From a virus: a stretch of DNA of 64,000 nucleotides. Below are positions 53,640 through 64,000 of this stretch, piece by piece. Location: positions 20,689-84,688 of the IMG/VR virus record IMGVR_UViG_3300020578_000037; one strand, given 5' to 3'. Position 1 is the first letter of the stretch. The number at the start of each line of letters is the position of its first letter. The translations under genes were made by a program, and so were the position numbers. The notes under the pieces were generated by a model. It was given only the letters and a program-made list of their open reading frames with translations, was not told where the DNA came from and did no database searches.

Positions 53640-54706
53640 AGAGCTAATGCTTTTTTATACAGATCTAAACAATACTTTGATACATTGTTTTTATTCTCGA
53701 TGTCCAGAAGATTGACAAATTCTTCAATTGCTTTATTCATATCAACGCCAGATAAATCAAAATTTTGATCGTCAATAACAGCGATAGAATCATCATAAAG
53801 AGAATAATCAACGCTTAAGCTAAACGGCTTATAAGATGATATTTTTTGTATTAATGCATCGATTGTATCACTCGATATTTTTTTATCTATTATAAGTTTT
53901 ATAATATTATTTTCAATTTGCGCCTTTAAATTTTCAGATTTAGAAGCTTTTTGATCAACGAGATTAGAGATTGATATTTTTTTATGCTTAGGTGAGAGAG
54001 CGTTTTCATGAAAATCATATTTTAAATTAGGTATATCGAGAATGTAATACCCTTTAGAAGATTCTATATCACCGAAATCCATTTCAAACGGATTACCAAC
54101 GTAAACTATAGTCTTGTCATTATATTTACGTTCATCACGGAGATGAAAATGCCCGGTCATAATAAGAGTACCTTTATCTAGTAAATCCTTGGTTTTTAGC
54201 CCATGATCGCAAAGCTTGTGTAAATTCATTTTAAAACTTTCGATTTCCAAATGACCAAAAATAATATCGCTCGTCTCAATATTAGATATATCAGCACCCC
54301 AGGGCAAAAACGTGCATTTCTTACCGTACAGATTATGGTTTTCTATATTACTAATAATTCTAATATTTTTCCAGCCGTTTAAAATAGAAAGTGAATTAAT
54401 ATCTGTCCTGTCTTTATAAAACGAATCATGATTGCCTACTAATATTACAATATTAAAATTTTCCCATTCTTTTAAAATCTGATTAACGATATGGATGGTA
54501 TTAACAGCTATTTCATCTCTATAGTGATATACATCGCCAAGAATAACAATATCTTTTATATTTTTAGCTATAAGCTCTTGCTTAAGCCAGGTAGCCCATT
54601 TAATAGCAGTATCGTGCCATAAATTGCTATTTTGATGCACACCAATGTGTAAATCACCAATACAGCAAACCTGACTTTTATTAAGATTAATTTCCTCTGA
54701 CTTCAT
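53636..54706 (-). CDS. gp47: Recombination nuclease subunit gp47-like (Mre11/SbcD)
   Basis: 356 residues (T4 gp47 is 339). Metallophosphoesterase motifs in order: CIGDLHIGVHQ (about 15-25), VILGDVYHYRDE, LVGNHDSFYKD, and TGHFHLRDE, carrying the Asp/His/Asn ligands for two Mn ions. Helical C-terminal part binds gp46. The start overlaps the gp55 stop by 4 nt, so sigma factor and nuclease are translationally coupled. Confidence 0.95.
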   Translation of the reverse strand: MKSEEINLNKSQVCCIGDLHIGVHQNSNLWHDTAIKWATWLKQELIAKNIKDIVILGDVYHYRDEIAVNTIHIVNQILKEWENFNIVILVGNHDSFYKDRTDINSLSILNGWKNIRIISNIENHNLYGKKCTFLPWGADISNIETSDIIFGHLEIESFKMNLHKLCDHGLKTKDLLDKGTLIMTGHFHLRDERKYNDKTIVYVGNPFEMDFGDIESSKGYYILDIPNLKYDFHENALSPKHKKISISNLVDQKASKSENLKAQIENNIIKLIIDKKISSDTIDALIQKISSYKPFSLSVDYSLYDDSIAVIDDQNFDLSGVDMNKAIEEFVNLLDIENKNNVSKYCLDLYKKALAL

Positions 54707-55314
54707 GAAGCGGTGTTATAATTATCGTCATCGACCTTATCTGGCTCTACGTATATGTGTGCGCCACCCATTAGCTCCGGATTAATCATGTGTTCTGTAT
54801 AAACCTTTGCTCTATATTCATCTAATGCAGCGTGATGCTTATTTTCCTTCTTAATTCTATTAATAAAGGCATGAAACGCAATAGTTGTAAAGTACGAAAA
54901 AGGACTAAACCCTGTATCAAGCTTAAATTTTTTATTCCTTAATGCAGAGAACATTTTTACTATAGCATCTCCTATCATATCATCTTTATAAGAATAATTG
55001 ATAAAGTTGGGAGCATAAGATAGACCGTTAGCAATTTTAGTGAGGCTTTCTCCGAGCTTTGTTGTTATATGCCCAGATTTATAATACTGTCTTATTTCTT
55101 CTTCGAATTCTTTTCCGTTAACATAATGCACCTTATCTTTAGCTGCAGTTTTTTTAGCTGATGGTGTAACTACTGGTACCTGTATTACTCCAGTTTCAAT
55201 TATTTTCTTCAGCTCGGGATCGAGCTGAGATGTATTACTCTTCTTTTTTAAAGAGCTGGTTTTCTTAACTTTCAATAATTTCTCTGGTAGAGTATTTAAT
55301 TTTTTCTTTTTCAT
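54703..55314 (-). CDS. gp55: Late-transcription sigma factor gp55-like
   Basis: 203 residues (T4 gp55 is 185). The first 65 residues are a basic Lys/Ser extension overlapping uvsW by 50 nt. The conserved core YKDDMIGDAIVKMFSALRNK, then FKLDTGFSPFSYFTTIAFHA and FINRIKKENKH, is the sigma region 2-like element that in T4 recognises TATAAATA. The many NWTAAATA octamers in the window are its expected targets. The C-terminus (ending NYNTAS) lacks an obvious hydrophobic clamp-binding tip as in T4. No earlier alternative start was seen. Confidence 0.9.
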   Translation of the reverse strand: MKKKKLNTLPEKLLKVKKTSSLKKKSNTSQLDPELKKIIETGVIQVPVVTPSAKKTAAKDKVHYVNGKEFEEEIRQYYKSGHITTKLGESLTKIANGLSYAPNFINYSYKDDMIGDAIVKMFSALRNKKFKLDTGFSPFSYFTTIAFHAFINRIKKENKHHAALDEYRAKVYTEHMINPELMGGAHIYVEPDKVDDDNYNTAS

Positions 55315-57411: not shown

Positions 57412-57831
57412 GTGGAACTAGGACATTGGATTCTCGGAGATTCAGTAAAACTGGAAGAATCTACGTTCGGCTTTATTTACGAAATAACTAATACCGCAAC
57501 AAATAAAAAGTATATTGGTAAAAAACAATGTAAGTCGAAGCTTAAAAGAGCTCCGTTAAAAGGAAGAAAGAATAAGCGAATTGAAATAAAAGAATCTGAT
57601 TGGAGAGAATATACCAGCTCTTCTACAGAGCTAAATGAAGATATAAAAAAATACGGTAAGGATAAATTTATTTTTAAAATTTTAAAAACTTGTAATTCAA
57701 AATGGGAGTTAGCCTATTTTGAAATATTTGAGCAAATTAAAAATAATGTTTTATTAAGAGATGATTATTATAATGGTATTATAAATGTAAGAATAGGTCG
57801 ACCGCCAAAAAAATTTCTTGAACAAATTTAA
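57412..57831 (+). CDS. GIY-YIG-family nuclease domain protein
   Basis: 139 residues from a GTG. GFIYEITNTATNKKYIGKKQ is the GIY-YIG strand pair, WREYTSSSTELNEDIKKYGK and DKFIFKILKTCNSKWELAYF, then EIFEQIKNN with a probable catalytic Glu, complete the domain. Free-standing phage proteins of this form include Seg-type homing endonucleases, but this one is short, has no clear DNA-binding tail, and sits among late genes. It could instead act in DNA repair or cut host or rival DNA. Start GTG at 57412 is 12 nt after the previous stop. Confidence 0.7.
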   Translation: MELGHWILGDSVKLEESTFGFIYEITNTATNKKYIGKKQCKSKLKRAPLKGRKNKRIEIKESDWREYTSSSTELNEDIKKYGKDKFIFKILKTCNSKWELAYFEIFEQIKNNVLLRDDYYNGIINVRIGRPPKKFLEQI

Positions 57832-58410: not shown

Positions 58411-58418
58411 GATAAATA
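58411..58418 (+). promoter_or_regulatory. Late-type octamer GATAAATA, 58424 operon
   Basis: GATAAATA ending 5 nt before the ATG at 58424. Confidence 0.65.
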
Positions 58419-58423
58419 TATAC

Positions 58424-58870
58424 ATGGGGTTTATTGATTCATTTAACAAATACATGTCTCTTGTAACAGAAGCAGATATGCAGCCTCAAGACGCTGCAGC
58501 GCCAGCACCGGCCGCAGAGGCACCTCAGCCTAATGTCGCGCCTCAGGAAGCTCCTAAAGCAAATTCCGTGCCCCCAGAAGGCTACGTAGATATTGTTAGG
58601 TTGCTAGCAAAAGCCCTGGTAATGAACATACCTGCAGGTTCAATAGACGATCTCTTTACTACACCGATAACTAAAGAAAATGCTACTGAGGTTAGAGAAG
58701 GTCTGCAGGCTGCAATAGCTGCAAACGAAAATTATCAGGATAATCCTCAAAAAATTGAAAATCCACATTTTAAAAAGTTTGTGAATTCAATAAATGAAAA
58801 TAATTTTATGGCAAAGTATAAAGAAATTCTCAATATAATGAAACGGTACAGCAATGATATTGCTGCATAA
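58424..58870 (+). CDS. Late protein with capsid-leader-like N-terminus
   Basis: 148 residues. It opens MGFIDSFNKYMSLVTEADMQ: an amphipathic helix with VTE before Ala-Asp, closely like the T4 capsid-cleavage context. An Ala/Pro-rich linker at about 22-60 follows, then a compact helical body (YVDIVRLLAKALVMNIPAG, then KKFVNSINENNFMAKYKEIL). Same plan as the 35165 protein. Likely internal head protein (inference). First gene of a run leading into the nuclease-like, ligase-like and nucleotidyltransferase-like genes. Confidence 0.55.
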   Translation: MGFIDSFNKYMSLVTEADMQPQDAAAPAPAAEAPQPNVAPQEAPKANSVPPEGYVDIVRLLAKALVMNIPAGSIDDLFTTPITKENATEVREGLQAAIAANENYQDNPQKIENPHFKKFVNSINENNFMAKYKEILNIMKRYSNDIAA

Positions 58871-58875
58871 TAAAA

Positions 58876-60171
58876 ATGAAGTCGAAGCCTTACAGGAGCT
58901 TAGATCAAGTTTATCTTTCTGAATCTTTTGCTAAGTCTGTACCCCTATTACCGAGACAACAAGTTTTAAGAGAAGAGCTTAAGCAAGGGAGGGAGAAGCA
59001 TTATACGCAGCCTTCCGTACAATTTCATTTGCCTGGTATAGAGCCTGAAGAAGGAAGAACACTTCCTAAGGCAGAAATGGGAAGGATACTCGGTAGAAAA
59101 ATTAAGAAAACAGAAACTCCTATAGCGTATACTACCCCGGAAGAAGAAAAACAAGGTGAAAGCGAATTAATTGATATAGCTAAAAAAATTATCGGAGGAG
59201 GTGGGGAGGGAGCTGAAGATGCCGCAATGATTATAGTAGGTAAACTTAGAAAAATGAATAATAATAAAGATAAAAATATAGAATACGCAAATGTTAAAGG
59301 TATTTTGGTAGATTTAAGTAAACCTGCAAATAAAATTAATAACCTACCACCGCAGGGTAGAAGTAATTTAGTTGATGTAATATATAAAGAAACAAAAAAT
59401 AAATATCTCACCTCTCCGGAATTGATTAGAGCAATGCTTAATACTGTTGGTAGGGGAAGTGCTAATCTGGGTAAGGTTGAGTTAGGATTAACTATTTTTT
59501 ATAAAAATGCAAGGAAGGCCATAGGCGGGGGTGATATAGAAATTCAAAGAGGTGATTATAATAGCATACCCCTGCAAATTGGAACAGTAACTTATGAAGT
59601 AAAGGGCACCGATGGTAGAATGGGTAAGGGCAACCCTACATTGGCTTTAAAGAATATAGAAACATATATGAATAATTTTTATAAAAAATATAATATTAAT
59701 AAGCAATTTGGTCAAGTAAATAGCGCTGGAGGAGATAATACTACTTTAATTACTAATATTTACATGTGTTTAAATGAAATTGTTAGTATAGAAAGTTCTA
59801 CCATAAAAGATATTTTTGGTCTTATTTTTTATAGTTCACCTAAAGAGATAAAAGATAGCAGTATTAAAAATACTATTTTTAATCAATTTATTGAAGCTTC
59901 AAATAATTTTAAAAAAGAAGCTTTTTCGGGTGCGCTTGGTGAAGAGTTAATTAAGCTACTGTCAACAGCACTACAAATGCAAACATATAAGCTTACTGAT
60001 GGTCAAGACTTTGATAATCTTCTTGCATTTAATGATAACTTTAATGCTTTTATTGTAGATGTAAATGGTTTTGATTTTATGAAATATTATAATATTGTTG
60101 ACAAATATTTTATTATATCTAGACCGAGCTCTGACCAGCAACATGGTACTTTTGGTATTTCATTAAAATGA
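58876..60171 (+). CDS. PD-(D/E)XK-like protein with possible capsid leader
   Basis: 431 residues. N-terminus MKSKPYRSLDQVYLSESFAK has LSE before Ser, a candidate leader. Residues 20-95 are a charged linker. GKVELGLTIFYKNARKAIGG (E202), GGGDIEIQRGD (D220), and then TVTYEVKGTDGRMGKGNP (E241, K243) look like the E...D...ExK arrangement of PD-(D/E)XK nucleases, with the ExK followed by a Gly/Arg loop. Whether it cuts DNA or is structural is unknown. Its stop overlaps the ligase-like start by ATGA, so translation is coupled. Late promoter is upstream of 58424. Confidence 0.5.
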   Translation: MKSKPYRSLDQVYLSESFAKSVPLLPRQQVLREELKQGREKHYTQPSVQFHLPGIEPEEGRTLPKAEMGRILGRKIKKTETPIAYTTPEEEKQGESELIDIAKKIIGGGGEGAEDAAMIIVGKLRKMNNNKDKNIEYANVKGILVDLSKPANKINNLPPQGRSNLVDVIYKETKNKYLTSPELIRAMLNTVGRGSANLGKVELGLTIFYKNARKAIGGGDIEIQRGDYNSIPLQIGTVTYEVKGTDGRMGKGNPTLALKNIETYMNNFYKKYNINKQFGQVNSAGGDNTTLITNIYMCLNEIVSIESSTIKDIFGLIFYSSPKEIKDSSIKNTIFNQFIEASNNFKKEAFSGALGEELIKLLSTALQMQTYKLTDGQDFDNLLAFNDNFNAFIVDVNGFDFMKYYNIVDKYFIISRPSSDQQHGTFGISLK

Positions 60172-61382
60172 TCACATTCGCACAGTTTATTACTGAGGGT
60201 GGTGTAGCTGGGCATATGGCGCATCCTTTCGATTTACCTGGAGCTAACAGTGGTAGCGGTCTTGTTTCAATTTTTAAAAAAATAGTAAAAAGCTTGCAAA
60301 CAAAACCTTCTGCAGTAAAGATAGATGGTCTTAATACGTCTATTAAATTAATAACAAACCAAGAAGGTAATAAAGAGTTTGCTATGGATAGGGGTTCTAA
60401 TAAAGTAGAAGATGTAGAGGGTGTTACTGTATCAAGATTAGCGCAAAGATTTCCAGAAGGACATGGTATGATTACAACGGGTAAAATAGTATTAGATATT
60501 TTTAACTCTGCTATACCTACAATAGAAAAAGAATTAAAAAAGCTTAAGATGTGGGATAACAATAAAATTCTTTTTAATATGGAATATGTTCAAGGCTCGA
60601 CAAATGTGATAGGCTATGCAAATAATTTTTTAGCTATACACGGTTTAAATGAAATAATAAAAGTCAGAAGCCCAGTAAGAGGAAGTGTAAGCAGAGCATC
60701 GCGTGAAATTTCATATGATAAGAAAGCATTAATGTCACTTATTGAGAAAGTTAAGCCTATAGCATTAAAACAGAATTTTGATGTCGTAAATGAAATAGGT
60801 GTAGAATTAAAAAAGAATGTTGACTTTAATTCTGTTTTAAATTCTGAGTTTGCTGTGACTAAGGATTCAAGGACGTTTGATAAAAAGCCCTTACAATCAT
60901 GGTTATCAAAAGCAAAAAACCCTAGAGCTGAAAAAATTACTCTTGTAGATGGAAGGAAGATATCAGCTATGAGTTTAGAGAATTATAAAAATATTAAAAC
61001 AGGTGTACCTTTAAATTCTTATGCAAAAACTCCTAAAGATGTGCAGAAGGCTATAGATGGTGCAGTATTTTATCACGCAACTATTGTATTAGGAGATGCT
61101 ATAAAAACACAGGCTTCATCAAAACTAGGTGAATTAGATAAGCAAGAAGGTATAGTTGTACGTGATCCTTCTATATCTTCTAACCCAGTAAAAATTACCG
61201 GTAGTTTTATAACTGGAAAAGAATTAGGTAAATTTGCTAGGCGCGGTGAAAATGAAGAGTATGGTGTTCAAGGTCAGCTTGCTAATTCTGACAGAGTTAA
61301 TAAAAATAATAATTATATAACATCACCTCCTTACAGTAAAAACATCTTACATGGTCATCTTACACCGGGAATGAATATATGA
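60168..61382 (+). CDS. Ligase-like covalent nucleotidyltransferase with capsid leader
   Basis: 404 residues. Leader MITFAQFITE before Gly-Gly is almost the T4 internal-protein form. GHMAHPFDLPG follows. Motif I K51-I-D53-G54, motif Ia-like MDRGS at 73-77, motif III FNMEY at 136-140, motif IV EGIVVRD at 327-333 and a VKITG motif V near 341 fit the RNA/DNA ligase and capping superfamily. The wide III-IV gap holds an insertion. It should form an enzyme-AMP and seal or cap nucleic acid, exact substrate unknown. Coupled both ways by ATGA overlaps to the nuclease-like and nucleotidyltransferase-like genes. Confidence 0.7.
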   Translation: MITFAQFITEGGVAGHMAHPFDLPGANSGSGLVSIFKKIVKSLQTKPSAVKIDGLNTSIKLITNQEGNKEFAMDRGSNKVEDVEGVTVSRLAQRFPEGHGMITTGKIVLDIFNSAIPTIEKELKKLKMWDNNKILFNMEYVQGSTNVIGYANNFLAIHGLNEIIKVRSPVRGSVSRASREISYDKKALMSLIEKVKPIALKQNFDVVNEIGVELKKNVDFNSVLNSEFAVTKDSRTFDKKPLQSWLSKAKNPRAEKITLVDGRKISAMSLENYKNIKTGVPLNSYAKTPKDVQKAIDGAVFYHATIVLGDAIKTQASSKLGELDKQEGIVVRDPSISSNPVKITGSFITGKELGKFARRGENEEYGVQGQLANSDRVNKNNNYITSPPYSKNILHGHLTPGMNI

Positions 61383-62032
61383 AATTCTACGAGCTTGTCC
61401 TAGAAATTCTTCAACATCAAAAAAATAATCTTATTGTTGTTTTTCCGGGTAGATTTCAACCTTTTCATGAAGGGCATAAGAAAATTTACGATTTAGCTAA
61501 AAAACAATTTCCTGGTGCAGATTTTTTTGTAGCTACATCTGATGAAATAGCTAAGGCAAAAGACCCTGAGCGCTATCCATTTAATTTTGCTGAAAAAAAA
61601 GCAATCATGATAGCCGCCGGTGTTCCAGAGAATGAAATTAAATTAGTGAAGCAACCTTACAAGCCTTTAGAAATTTTAAAAGAGTATGATCAAAATATAG
61701 CGAAAGTTATTTATTTAGTAGGTAAAAAAGATATGGAATCGGATCCTAGGTTTGCATTTGGTACTACTACTAAAGGTACACCTACTTACTTTCAACCTTT
61801 TACAGACTTAAACTCAATGCAACCATTTAAAGAACAAGGTGGGCATGGATACATTTACGCACCAACAACTGTAGAATTTAATTTAAATGGTAGAAAAATT
61901 ACAAGCGCTTCGGAGTTGAGGAATCTATATAAAAATTCAAACAATATACTGAGAAAAGATATTATTAAAGCAGTCTTAGGCGGAAAATTTAATCCAAAAA
62001 TCTATAATTTGTTTAACAATAAAATAAAATAA
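61379..62032 (+). CDS. NMNAT/cytidylyltransferase-like nucleotidyltransferase
   Basis: 217 residues. GRFQPFHEGH at 24-33 is the HxGH nucleotide-binding motif of the cytidylyltransferase/NMN adenylyltransferase superfamily; VIYLVGKKDM near 110-119 and ITSASELR at 174-181 (the ISxTxxR-type motif) complete it. It joins NMP to a small phosphate compound, for example NMN to ATP for NAD+, but the substrate is not decided by sequence here. The first 16 residues (MKFYELVLEILQHQKN) precede the family start and end in a VLE-like element, a possible short capsid leader. ATGA overlap with the ligase-like gene. Confidence 0.75.
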   Translation: MKFYELVLEILQHQKNNLIVVFPGRFQPFHEGHKKIYDLAKKQFPGADFFVATSDEIAKAKDPERYPFNFAEKKAIMIAAGVPENEIKLVKQPYKPLEILKEYDQNIAKVIYLVGKKDMESDPRFAFGTTTKGTPTYFQPFTDLNSMQPFKEQGGHGYIYAPTTVEFNLNGRKITSASELRNLYKNSNNILRKDIIKAVLGGKFNPKIYNLFNNKIK

Positions 62033-62035
62033 TTT

Positions 62036-62602
62036 TTATTTTTTATTCTCTAAAAGAACTATTGTTTCAAAAAGAACTTTCTCTAGCGTTTCGCGTGATT
62101 CTCTTTTTAAAACGCTCTGTAATTGCCTAACTAAATCCTCTCCGCCTGCTGAAATAGCCTTAAAAAGATCCTCTTCATTATTTTCTTCTAGGTTACCTCC
62201 GCATACCGCATCTGTGGGTTCAGTTACAGCTTTATAATCCTCATAGCCAAATACCGATTGTATTTGATCATGAGCATTGGTAAGTTTGCTTAAGATCCAT
62301 GCTTCTACATTATCTTTACCGTTCAATATATCATGTAGCATTGCTGAAACTTTATGTATTCTAAATAACAATTGCCGGCACATTTCACCATTACTTTCTG
62401 ATTCATCATTTACTCTGCCTTCACAACCTTCTTCATGTCCTCCCTCACAATTACAATTCTTATTAGGAGGTACTACTTGTGCCATTTTATCAGGAGAAGG
62501 AATAACACCAGAGTTATCAGCCTTAGGGCCTAAGCCCACGCTTTCATTAACGATCTTTTTGTTATATAGATCATTTAATGCATTAAAATCTTTGGCAAAC
62601 AT
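62036..62602 (-). CDS. Late protein with capsid-leader-like N-terminus, Cys cluster
   Basis: 188 residues. It opens MFAKDFNALNDLYNKKIVNE before Ser, the leader pattern again. A short cysteine cluster NCNCEGGHEEGCEG near 48-62 could bind a metal. Then a helical domain CRQLLFRIHKVSAMLHDILN, AWILSKLTNAHDQIQSVFGY and an acidic end. Proteins with this helical domain occur widely in marine T4-like phages without known function (impression). The only minus-strand member of this terminal late cluster; divergent to 62635. Late octamer ATTAAATA, 5 nt upstream. Confidence 0.5.
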   Translation of the reverse strand: MFAKDFNALNDLYNKKIVNESVGLGPKADNSGVIPSPDKMAQVVPPNKNCNCEGGHEEGCEGRVNDESESNGEMCRQLLFRIHKVSAMLHDILNGKDNVEAWILSKLTNAHDQIQSVFGYEDYKAVTEPTDAVCGGNLEENNEEDLFKAISAGGEDLVRQLQSVLKRESRETLEKVLFETIVLLENKK

Positions 62603-63354: not shown

Positions 63355-64000
63355 GTGCAACCATTTAAAGATTTTTATAAAAACCCTATTTTTGGCGTTA
63401 ATGAATTTATTGAAATTGACGGCTTGGGTAAGCTTAAGGCAAAAATTGATAGCGGTAATGAGGCTTATAACGTATTGCACGGAGTGGATATCTCGGAAGA
63501 CGGTGAAAATATTTCTTTTACTACCGTAGATAATAAAAAAATAAAAGCGCCTCGTGCTGGTGATATTAAAATCCATATTGGTAGCGGGGTAAAAGAAGAT
63601 AGACCTATAGTAAAATTAAATATAAAAATTAATGGTAAAGAATATAAAGATGTGCCTTTTAGTATTGCAGATCGCACAGAGAATGAAGATCCAATTTTAG
63701 TGGGCGAGCCATTTTTAAAAAAGCTAAACGCTCTTATTGATGTAAACAAGCAAGTTCAAGAATCGACAAAATATAGAGTAATTGCTATCGATAAGAAAGA
63801 TCCTCTAGCTAAAGCATGGTTAAAGCCTAACTTTAGTGAAAAGGCGATAAGAAATATAGCAAACAGGCAAAAGACGTTAATTGTTACAAAATCGGGTAGT
63901 CCCAAATTTAAAGGCAAAAATGTTTTAAAAATAGTTAATCCTAATACAAAAAAAGCGTTTGTTGTGTTTAAGAAGAAATCAGAAGCCTCTGAAACCGATA
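63355..64000 (+). CDS. Retropepsin-like aspartic protease (partial)
   Basis: Open from a GTG at 63355 to the window edge, 215 residues visible. KAKIDSGNEAYNVLHGVDIS carries D-S-G in the setting of the retropepsin-like family that also covers bacterial proteins labelled ATP-dependent zinc protease. DRTENEDPILVGEPFLKKLN then ALIDVNK is the second, flap-to-C-terminal hallmark (ILxGxxFL...LIDV). The N-terminus MQPFKDFYKNPIFGVNEF may be another capsid leader, though without an LxE site. Late promoter. The rest is Lys-rich and may bind nucleic acid. A maturation role in heads or early infection is possible, but unproven. Confidence 0.7.
   Translation, partial: MQPFKDFYKNPIFGVNEFIEIDGLGKLKAKIDSGNEAYNVLHGVDISEDGENISFTTVDNKKIKAPRAGDIKIHIGSGVKEDRPIVKLNIKINGKEYKDVPFSIADRTENEDPILVGEPFLKKLNALIDVNKQVQESTKYRVIAIDKKDPLAKAWLKPNFSEKAIRNIANRQKTLIVTKSGSPKFKGKNVLKIVNPNTKKAFVVFKKKSEASETD

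What the first reader, a model, noticed from the sequence alone, without database searches (positions are those of the whole stretch)
58424..62032. Coupled nuclease-like, ligase-like and nucleotidyltransferase-like late operon as possible injected cargo
58876 (PD-(D/E)XK-like), 60168 (ligase-like, KIDG to EGIVVRD) and 61379 (HxGH nucleotidyltransferase) overlap by ATGA junctions, follow a late promoter and start with capsid-leader-like sequences. A cutter, a sealer and an NMNAT-like enzyme made late suggest a virion-delivered nucleic-acid repair, circularisation or NAD+-replenishing set acting at the start of the next infection, perhaps against host defence. Gene order and motifs are seen; delivery and role are inference.
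Basis: partly seen in the sequence, partly recalled or inferred. Interest (0 to 1): 0.85.

Follow-up and report, generated by a model that had tools for sequence, protein, structure and literature searches.

The report
Late phage operon: nuclease, ligase-like, nucleotidyltransferase
An uncultured T4-like virus of bacteria makes, late in infection, a variable nuclease-like protein, an undescribed ligase-like enzyme and an adenylyltransferase-like enzyme; the last two are linked or fused in nearly every relative checked, and counterparts of the first and last have been found in other virus particles, so the set may be carried into the next cell to repair damage.

Summary
58424-62032 is one four-gene late operon: ATAAATA lies just before the start codon of the first gene in 27 of 30 loci and before none of the other three. 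58876 keeps a PD-(D/E)XK signature; 60168 keeps covalent-nucleotidyltransferase motifs and models as a divergent ligase-like fold without a Pfam or PHROG family; 61379 is a HIGH-superfamily nucleotidyltransferase. Relatives add what one genome could not show. (1) The ligase-like domain has a HIGH enzyme beside it or fused to it, in both fusion orders, wherever flanks are intact. (2) The nuclease slot is hypervariable behind a conserved 28-residue leader (59% identity between families, bodies 23%), resembling T4 capsid-targeted internal proteins. (3) Cyanophages carry the same order with other families (PD-(D/E)XK-like, DUF6267, HIGH); published virion proteomes list the HIGH protein in four isolates and a slot nuclease in one. 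Fusions with a P-loop kinase, a Pol-beta nucleotidyltransferase and a poly(A)-polymerase domain favour RNA-end repair over NAD+ replenishment (no NadV-type gene found). Delivery is probable for nuclease and HIGH enzyme, unproven for the ligase; substrate and role remain inference.

The parts
58412..58418 (+). late promoter-like ATAAATA, 5 nt before the start codon of 58424
   Evidence: 27 of 30 homologous loci keep it (26 at exactly 5 nt), none before the three downstream genes; most enriched upstream 7-mer in the window
58424..58870 (+). first gene of the operon, 148 aa, N-terminus MGFIDSFNKYMSLVTEAD, then an Ala/Pro-rich stretch; function unknown, possibly head-associated
   Evidence: homologue in the same place in 38 loci; no Pfam/PHROG hit above cut-off
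58876..60171 (+). PD-(D/E)XK-like protein, 431 aa, in a hypervariable slot
   Evidence: invariant G199, E202, D220, E241, K243; AF2 pLDDT 75, with helix 202-208, strands 221-228 and 231-243 and helix 254-271 around the motif
58876..58980 (+). conserved leader of the slot (KPYRSLDQVYLSESFAKSVPLLPRQQVLRE) with two candidate prohead-protease sites, LSE and LRE
   Evidence: leader 59% identical between families whose bodies are 23% identical; present on the ligase itself in L024; residues 24-91 disordered in the model
60168..61382 (+). ligase-like covalent-nucleotidyltransferase protein, 404 aa; candidate nucleophile K51 in KIDGLN, E327-G in motif IV, K342 in motif V; N-terminal element EGGxxGHMxHPFD
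   Evidence: 158-sequence conservation; AF2 pLDDT 82, pTM 0.79; BFVD match to the S-PM2 DUF6267-NTase fusion E 2.8e-5
60168..60197 (+). T4 capsid-targeting-like N-terminus MITFAQFITE
   Evidence: CTS-like in 23 of 26 distinct stand-alone N-termini against 0.2 shuffled
61379..62032 (+). HIGH-superfamily nucleotidyltransferase, 217 aa, GRFQPFHEGH ... TSASELR
   Evidence: PF01467 E 7.8e-8, TIGR00125, phrog_395; HxGH kept in all 25 adjacent-gene homologues
54703..55314 (-). gp55-type late sigma factor
   Evidence: phrog_234 E 1.7e-26
63355..63999 (+). retropepsin-like protein (RloA/PF05618-like), possible further member of the set, cut by the window end
   Evidence: NCBIfam and Pfam sub-threshold hits; the same kind of domain is fused with HIGH NTase, a Pol-beta NTase region and the ligase in L155

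Best explanation
This is a late operon encoding virion cargo built round an enzyme pair: a divergent, probably RNA-joining covalent nucleotidyltransferase (60168) working with a HIGH-superfamily adenylyltransferase (61379), preceded by a swappable PD-(D/E)XK-like nuclease (58876). Proposed mechanism: the proteins are made late with head and tail proteins; N-terminal leaders take them into the prohead, where a gp21-type protease trims after (L/I/V)xE; they enter the next cell with the DNA. There the ligase adenylylates on K51 and seals broken nucleic-acid ends, most likely RNA cut by host defence; the HIGH enzyme supplies or recycles an adenylylated substrate for it; the nuclease acts on a host or competitor target that varies between phages. 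Shown by sequence and comparison: operon, late promoter, enzyme classes, near-obligate coupling of ligase and HIGH enzyme, leader conservation, variability of the slot. Shown by others in cyanophages: virion detection of the HIGH enzyme and of one slot protein. Inferred: packaging and injection in this phage, delivery of the ligase, RNA as substrate, target of the nuclease, anti-defence role.
For: Late single-promoter operon. Coupling: 82 NT-LIG fusions, 9 LIG-NT fusions, 25 LIG>NT and 1 NT>LIG adjacent genes; the apparent exceptions with intact flanks, L024, L038, L064, L065 and L077, have a different HIGH enzyme next door by motif. NT-LIG domains carry GxHH and SGTxxR, LIG-NT and adjacent ones HxGH and mostly SAxExR, so the two fusion orders look independent. 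S-SM1-type DUF6267 is followed by a HIGH enzyme in 36 of 37 loci, the other being cut, and is fused to one in S-PM2. RNA side: fused P-loop kinase, PolyA_pol_RNAbd E 5.9e-7 in L152 and a weak Pol-beta NTase region in L155; motif I is KxDGxN; first PDB fold hits include an archaeal RNA ligase and capping enzymes, none significant. Delivery: leaders; gp21 in 9 of 10 related records; virion detection of HIGH enzymes in S-SM1 (PMC3037559), S-CREM2 (PMC10665884), S-SZBM1 (PMC9146016) and S-SCSM1 (PMC9602691); slot nuclease SSCSM1_90 recorded as virion protein. These virion-detected HIGH enzymes start MKNFSSFLTEA, MKKFSAFLNEA, MRFRQFIIEA and MKSFLQFLKEA.
Against: No experiment on this phage; its record is an 84.7-kb fragment in which gp21 was not found. 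The DUF6267 counterpart has no capsid-type start and is not in the S-SZBM1 virion list; authors of two proteomes warn of possible carry-over. NT-LIG fusions have no leader (0 of 34), so delivery is not required for function everywhere. No significant PDB fold match for either model. No member reaches a Pfam ligase cut-off. Ten related records have no recognisable DNA ligase, leaving a DNA role open.
Confidence: 0.42

Rival explanations
1. DNA-end repair at the start of infection: the nuclease trims and the ligase seals breaks or nicks in the incoming genome, the HIGH enzyme supporting adenylylation; the pair is this lineage's replacement for gp30-type DNA ligase.
For: No ATP- or NAD-dependent DNA ligase in ten related records. 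NT-LIG fusions commonly follow a gp47/gp46-like gene. A nuclease directly precedes the ligase.
Against: Late promoter does not suit a replicative ligase; motif I is KxDGxN rather than the KxDGxR/A of DNA ligases (family knowledge); fused kinase, poly(A)-polymerase domain and Pol-beta NTase are typical of RNA repair; the records are mostly fragments.
Confidence: 0.24
2. NAD+ replenishment: 61379 is an NMN adenylyltransferase delivered to restore NAD+ after host NADase defence; the ligase-like protein is ancillary.
For: NMNAT models are among the best NCBIfam hits; cyanophage authors propose it; phage NAD+ reconstitution pathways exist.
Against: All NMNAT hits are far below their curated cut-offs; no nicotinamide phosphoribosyltransferase in ten records, whereas NadM-containing phages reportedly always have NadV (PMC9503650); does not explain near-obligate linkage to a ligase or the altered HxGH motif in NT-LIG fusions.
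Confidence: 0.17
3. Late but not delivered: the enzymes act in the producing cell (end-processing, packaging, assembly), and virion detection in cyanophages is carry-over.
For: Authors of two proteomes raise carry-over; only two HIGH-enzyme peptides in S-SZBM1; NT-LIG fusions lack leaders.
Against: Repeated detection in four cyanophage isolates; leader conserved while the body is replaced; leader found on the ligase where the slot protein is absent (L024).
Confidence: 0.17

Closest known systems
T4 internal proteins with capsid targeting sequence (IPI, IPII, IPIII, Alt)
   Same: short N-terminal leader ending in (L/I/V)xE, conserved while the mature protein diversifies; late expression; gp21 protease in related genomes
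   Different: the slot leader is about 33 residues with two candidate sites instead of about 10; cargo is enzyme-like; packaging here is not shown
DUF6267 (PF19782; N-terminal half of phrog_455), T4-GC71 of cyanophages
   Same: HhxHPxD-type element about 30 residues before KxDG, EG(F/Y)V, final K; paired with or fused to a HIGH enzyme and preceded by a PD-(D/E)XK-like gene
   Different: no BLAST-level similarity; profile comparison only 9% probability (E 0.004) although above column-shuffled controls (score 30 against 21); viral structure match E 2.8e-5; no capsid-type leader
T4 Pnkp/Rnl1 and bacterial Pnkp-Rnl-Hen1 RNA repair
   Same: ligase with end-processing partners, including fused P-loop kinase and nucleotidyltransferases in relatives
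   Different: ligase is a new divergent family; a HIGH enzyme is the constant partner; late and possibly virion-borne rather than early
Phage NAD+ reconstitution (NARP2) and NadM/NadR
   Same: HIGH-superfamily adenylyltransferase
   Different: no nicotinamide phosphoribosyltransferase found; ligase partner instead of Nudix or NadR kinase arrangement in this clade
Polyvalent proteins of phages (Iyer et al. 2017, PMC5512222)
   Same: divergent relatives fuse kinase, HIGH NTase, retropepsin, Pol-beta NTase and ligase in proteins of about 1,000-1,400 aa
   Different: in this phage the domains are separate genes with separate leaders; the passages read do not describe this ligase family

Membership tests
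T4 capsid-targeted internal protein | N-terminal CTS of T4 type followed by (L/I/V)xE cleavage site | tested here: met
   clear for 60168 and for virion-detected cyanophage HIGH enzymes; 58876 has a different, longer leader; 61379 weak
T4 capsid-targeted internal protein | prohead protease gp21 in the genome | tested here: inconclusive
   9 of 10 related records; not found in the 84.7-kb own fragment
T4 capsid-targeted internal protein | present and cleaved inside the virion | not testable with these tools
   only literature on cyanophage counterparts
PD-(D/E)XK nuclease superfamily | E...D...(D/E)xK signature | tested here: met
   E202, D220, E241, K243 invariant
PD-(D/E)XK nuclease superfamily | fold similarity to a solved member | tested here: not met
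   no Foldseek PDB hit; model pLDDT 75
Covalent nucleotidyltransferase (ligase/capping) superfamily | motif I KxDG with the other superfamily motifs | tested here: met
   K51xDGxN, N137xE139, E327G, K342 invariant in 158 sequences
Covalent nucleotidyltransferase (ligase/capping) superfamily | fold similarity to a solved member | tested here: inconclusive
   archaeal RNA ligase, capping enzymes and human Lig1 in the top 50 but best E 0.08
RNA ligase PF09414 | score over the curated cut-off | tested here: not met
   one of 45 members at E 0.086
DUF6267 PF19782 | Pfam match | tested here: not met
   no hit; remote structural match only
HIGH-superfamily nucleotidyltransferase | HxGH and C-terminal (S/T)xSxxxR-type motifs, PF01467 | tested here: met
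NMN adenylyltransferase | equivalog-level match or activity | tested here: not met
   NCBIfam scores about 26 bits against cut-offs of 127 or more; activity not testable
NARP2 / phage NAD+ salvage | nicotinamide phosphoribosyltransferase partner | tested here: not met
   PF04095 absent from ten records, some of them fragments

The most novel reading that the evidence does not exclude
The pair is a self-contained, virion-delivered ligation machine with its own cofactor cycle: the ligase uses NAD+ (the invariant GHMxHPFD element before KxDG taking the place of the NMN-binding domain of NAD-dependent ligases), and the HIGH enzyme turns the released NMN back into NAD+ on the spot, so that sealing continues in a cell whose NAD+ is being destroyed. 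This would account for linkage in both fusion orders and recruitment of different HIGH branches.
Probability: 0.1. Interest if true: 0.88.

Novelty: new variant of a known kind. Interest (0 to 1): 0.72.

Why it matters
Phages are known to inject inhibitors and modifying enzymes, but a virion-borne nucleic-acid repair set, present at time zero, was not described in what could be searched here. The ligase family is widespread in aquatic myoviruses and has no Pfam or PHROG model; its cyanophage counterpart is a widespread 'unknown' (DUF6267, phrog_455). The comparison gives the family a partner, a likely enzyme class and a short list of assays. The swappable slot behind a fixed leader is a ready catalogue of candidate injected nucleases.

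Tried and rejected
Exact T4 late promoter TATAAATA: absent here and depleted window-wide (5 against 20.8); the relaxed, position-fixed ATAAATA replaced it. PADLOC: nothing convincing. Foldseek of the nuclease model: nothing. Genome-wide excess of CTS-like starts: clear in G003 (11 against 2.7), weak in the window (3 against 0.8) and not significant in G002 (5 against 2.9), so not used as main evidence. One common ancestor for all slot bodies: profile comparison links several families weakly through the PD-(D/E)XK core (A, C, D, I) but families B and G stay unlinked. Genome circularisation: no evidence found. Ligase-only exceptions: resolved as neighbours of another HIGH branch, on motif evidence.
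Full report
What is there. The window is 64 kb of an 84.7-kb IMG/VR virus record, a T4-like phage far from cultured ones (DNA polymerase at most about 31% identical among the best hits, phage C48C1 and Pelagibacter phage HTVC008M). The four genes of the finding exist as given. ATAAATA at 58412-58418 stands 5 nt before the 58424 start; it is kept within 5-6 nt of the start in 27 of 30 homologous loci and is never found before the other three genes. It is the most enriched 7-mer upstream of genes in the window, near-consensus copies precede tail tube and tail sheath genes, and a gp55-type sigma factor is encoded nearby. So this is a late operon with one promoter and almost no untranslated leader.

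The ligase-like protein. 60168 has no Pfam, PHROG or PDB sequence match but more than 460 relatives in IMG/VR. In 158 sequences the invariant residues are GG..GHM.HPFD, K51xDGxN, F95, G98, G100, N137xE139, N146, Y150, H158, E327G.V and K342xTGxF: the order of motifs of covalent nucleotidyltransferases, plus an N-terminal element of its own. The AlphaFold model is good over residues 13-354 (pLDDT 82, pTM 0.79). No PDB match is significant, though RNA ligase, capping enzymes and DNA ligase recur in the list. Among viral models 13 match at E of 1e-3 or better, several of them named cytidyltransferase-like, including the 591-residue S-PM2 protein, which is DUF6267 joined to a HIGH domain. DUF6267 shows the same layout (HLEHPED, KWDG, EG(F/Y)V, K). 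Profile comparison alone is not conclusive: 9% probability, E 0.004, score 30 against at most 21 for column-shuffled controls. I treat the two as probable distant relatives, not as one family.

The coupling. Of the loci examined, 82 carry NTase-ligase fusions, 9 ligase-NTase fusions, 25 adjacent genes in the order of the window and 1 in the reverse order. The remaining loci are either cut by a contig end or, in L024, L038, L064, L065 and L077 (and its near-copy L080), have another HIGH protein with a different motif (GGFKPPHKGH, GRMNPPTLGH or GSFKPYHAGH) next to the ligase. The HIGH domains of the two fusion orders differ in their signatures, so the fusions look independent. In S-SM1-like cyanophage loci DUF6267 is likewise followed by a HIGH protein, starting MKKFSxF(L/I)xEA in nearly all, wherever the downstream sequence is held (36 of 37). 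Linkage that survives replacement of one partner is strong evidence that the two act together.

The nuclease slot. 58876 has no database match, yet E202, D220, E241 and K243 are invariant against families at about 20% identity, and predicted secondary structure round the motif fits a PD-(D/E)XK core. Fold search did not confirm it. The slot is hypervariable: at least seven body families, behind a leader of 28 residues that is 59% identical between families while bodies are 23% (188 pairs). In L024 the slot protein is gone and the leader stands on the ligase. In cyanophages the gene before DUF6267 is again variable and again PD-(D/E)XK-like by motif, as I read it. The T-even internal proteins are described in the same terms: a diverse set of defence proteins with only the capsid targeting sequence conserved (PMC3012670).

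Delivery. The HIGH protein was found in virions of S-SM1 (PMC3037559), S-CREM2 (PMC10665884), S-SZBM1 (PMC9146016) and S-SCSM1 (PMC9602691); in S-SCSM1 the adjacent slot protein is also recorded as a virion protein. All four HIGH proteins begin with T4 CTS-like sequences. The authors of two of these studies caution that carry-over is possible. For the ligase there is no such record: DUF6267 has no such start and is missing from the S-SZBM1 list. In the window's own clade the ligase does carry one. Reports that cyanophage virions carry NMNAT-like proteins are therefore prior art; the ligase partner, the slot and the leader logic are not described in the papers found (no held paper mentions DUF6267).

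Role. In divergent marine relatives the pair is part of proteins of about 1,000-1,400 residues together with a P-loop kinase (L098, L102, L123), a poly(A)-polymerase RNA-binding domain (L152), or a retropepsin domain and a Pol-beta nucleotidyltransferase region (L155). Kinases and Pol-beta nucleotidyltransferases are known companions of phage RNA ligases (PMC7824862). S-CREM2 ORF156, listed as virion-detected, is the stand-alone counterpart of the Pol-beta region. This favours RNA-end repair. Ten related records lack a recognisable DNA ligase, which leaves DNA repair open, and lack a nicotinamide phosphoribosyltransferase, which speaks against a complete NAD+ salvage route; several records are fragments, so absence is weak evidence.

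Verdict. Observation confirmed; interpretation partly supported. The new content is an undescribed ligase-like family tied to HIGH nucleotidyltransferases across marine T4-like phages, with a swappable leader-tagged nuclease before it. Enzyme activities, the packaging of the ligase and the anti-defence role all need experiments.

Noticed in passing
L033-L075, L093-L162 (NT-LIG fusions): HIGH domains in NT-LIG fusions carry GxHH instead of HxGH (66 of 67 readable cases) with SGTxxR; catalytic consequence unknown.
   Followed up: partly
window 63355-63999; L155 1450-5061: The retropepsin-like (RloA/PF05618-like) gene next to the operon has a counterpart fused in L155 with the HIGH enzyme, a Pol-beta NTase region and the ligase.
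   Followed up: partly
window, several genes: Late promoter motif ends 5-8 nt before the start codon, so late mRNAs would be nearly leaderless; exact TATAAATA is depleted (5 against 20.8 expected).
   Followed up: partly
window 57412-57831: SegE-like GIY-YIG gene kept at the same place in 39 loci, not behaving like a mobile homing gene; its PHROG (447) is named NAD synthetase, probably a mislabel.
   Followed up: no
window 62036-62602 (-): Conserved minus-strand gene of unknown function between the operon and 62635, kept in 33 loci.
   Followed up: no
L064 5079-5984: Extra 301-aa gene between the slot protein and the ligase, without family match.
   Followed up: no
G003 96494-101380: Run of late genes with T4 CTS-like starts (11 of 194 genes genome-wide against 2.7 expected), candidate set of internal proteins.
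   Followed up: partly
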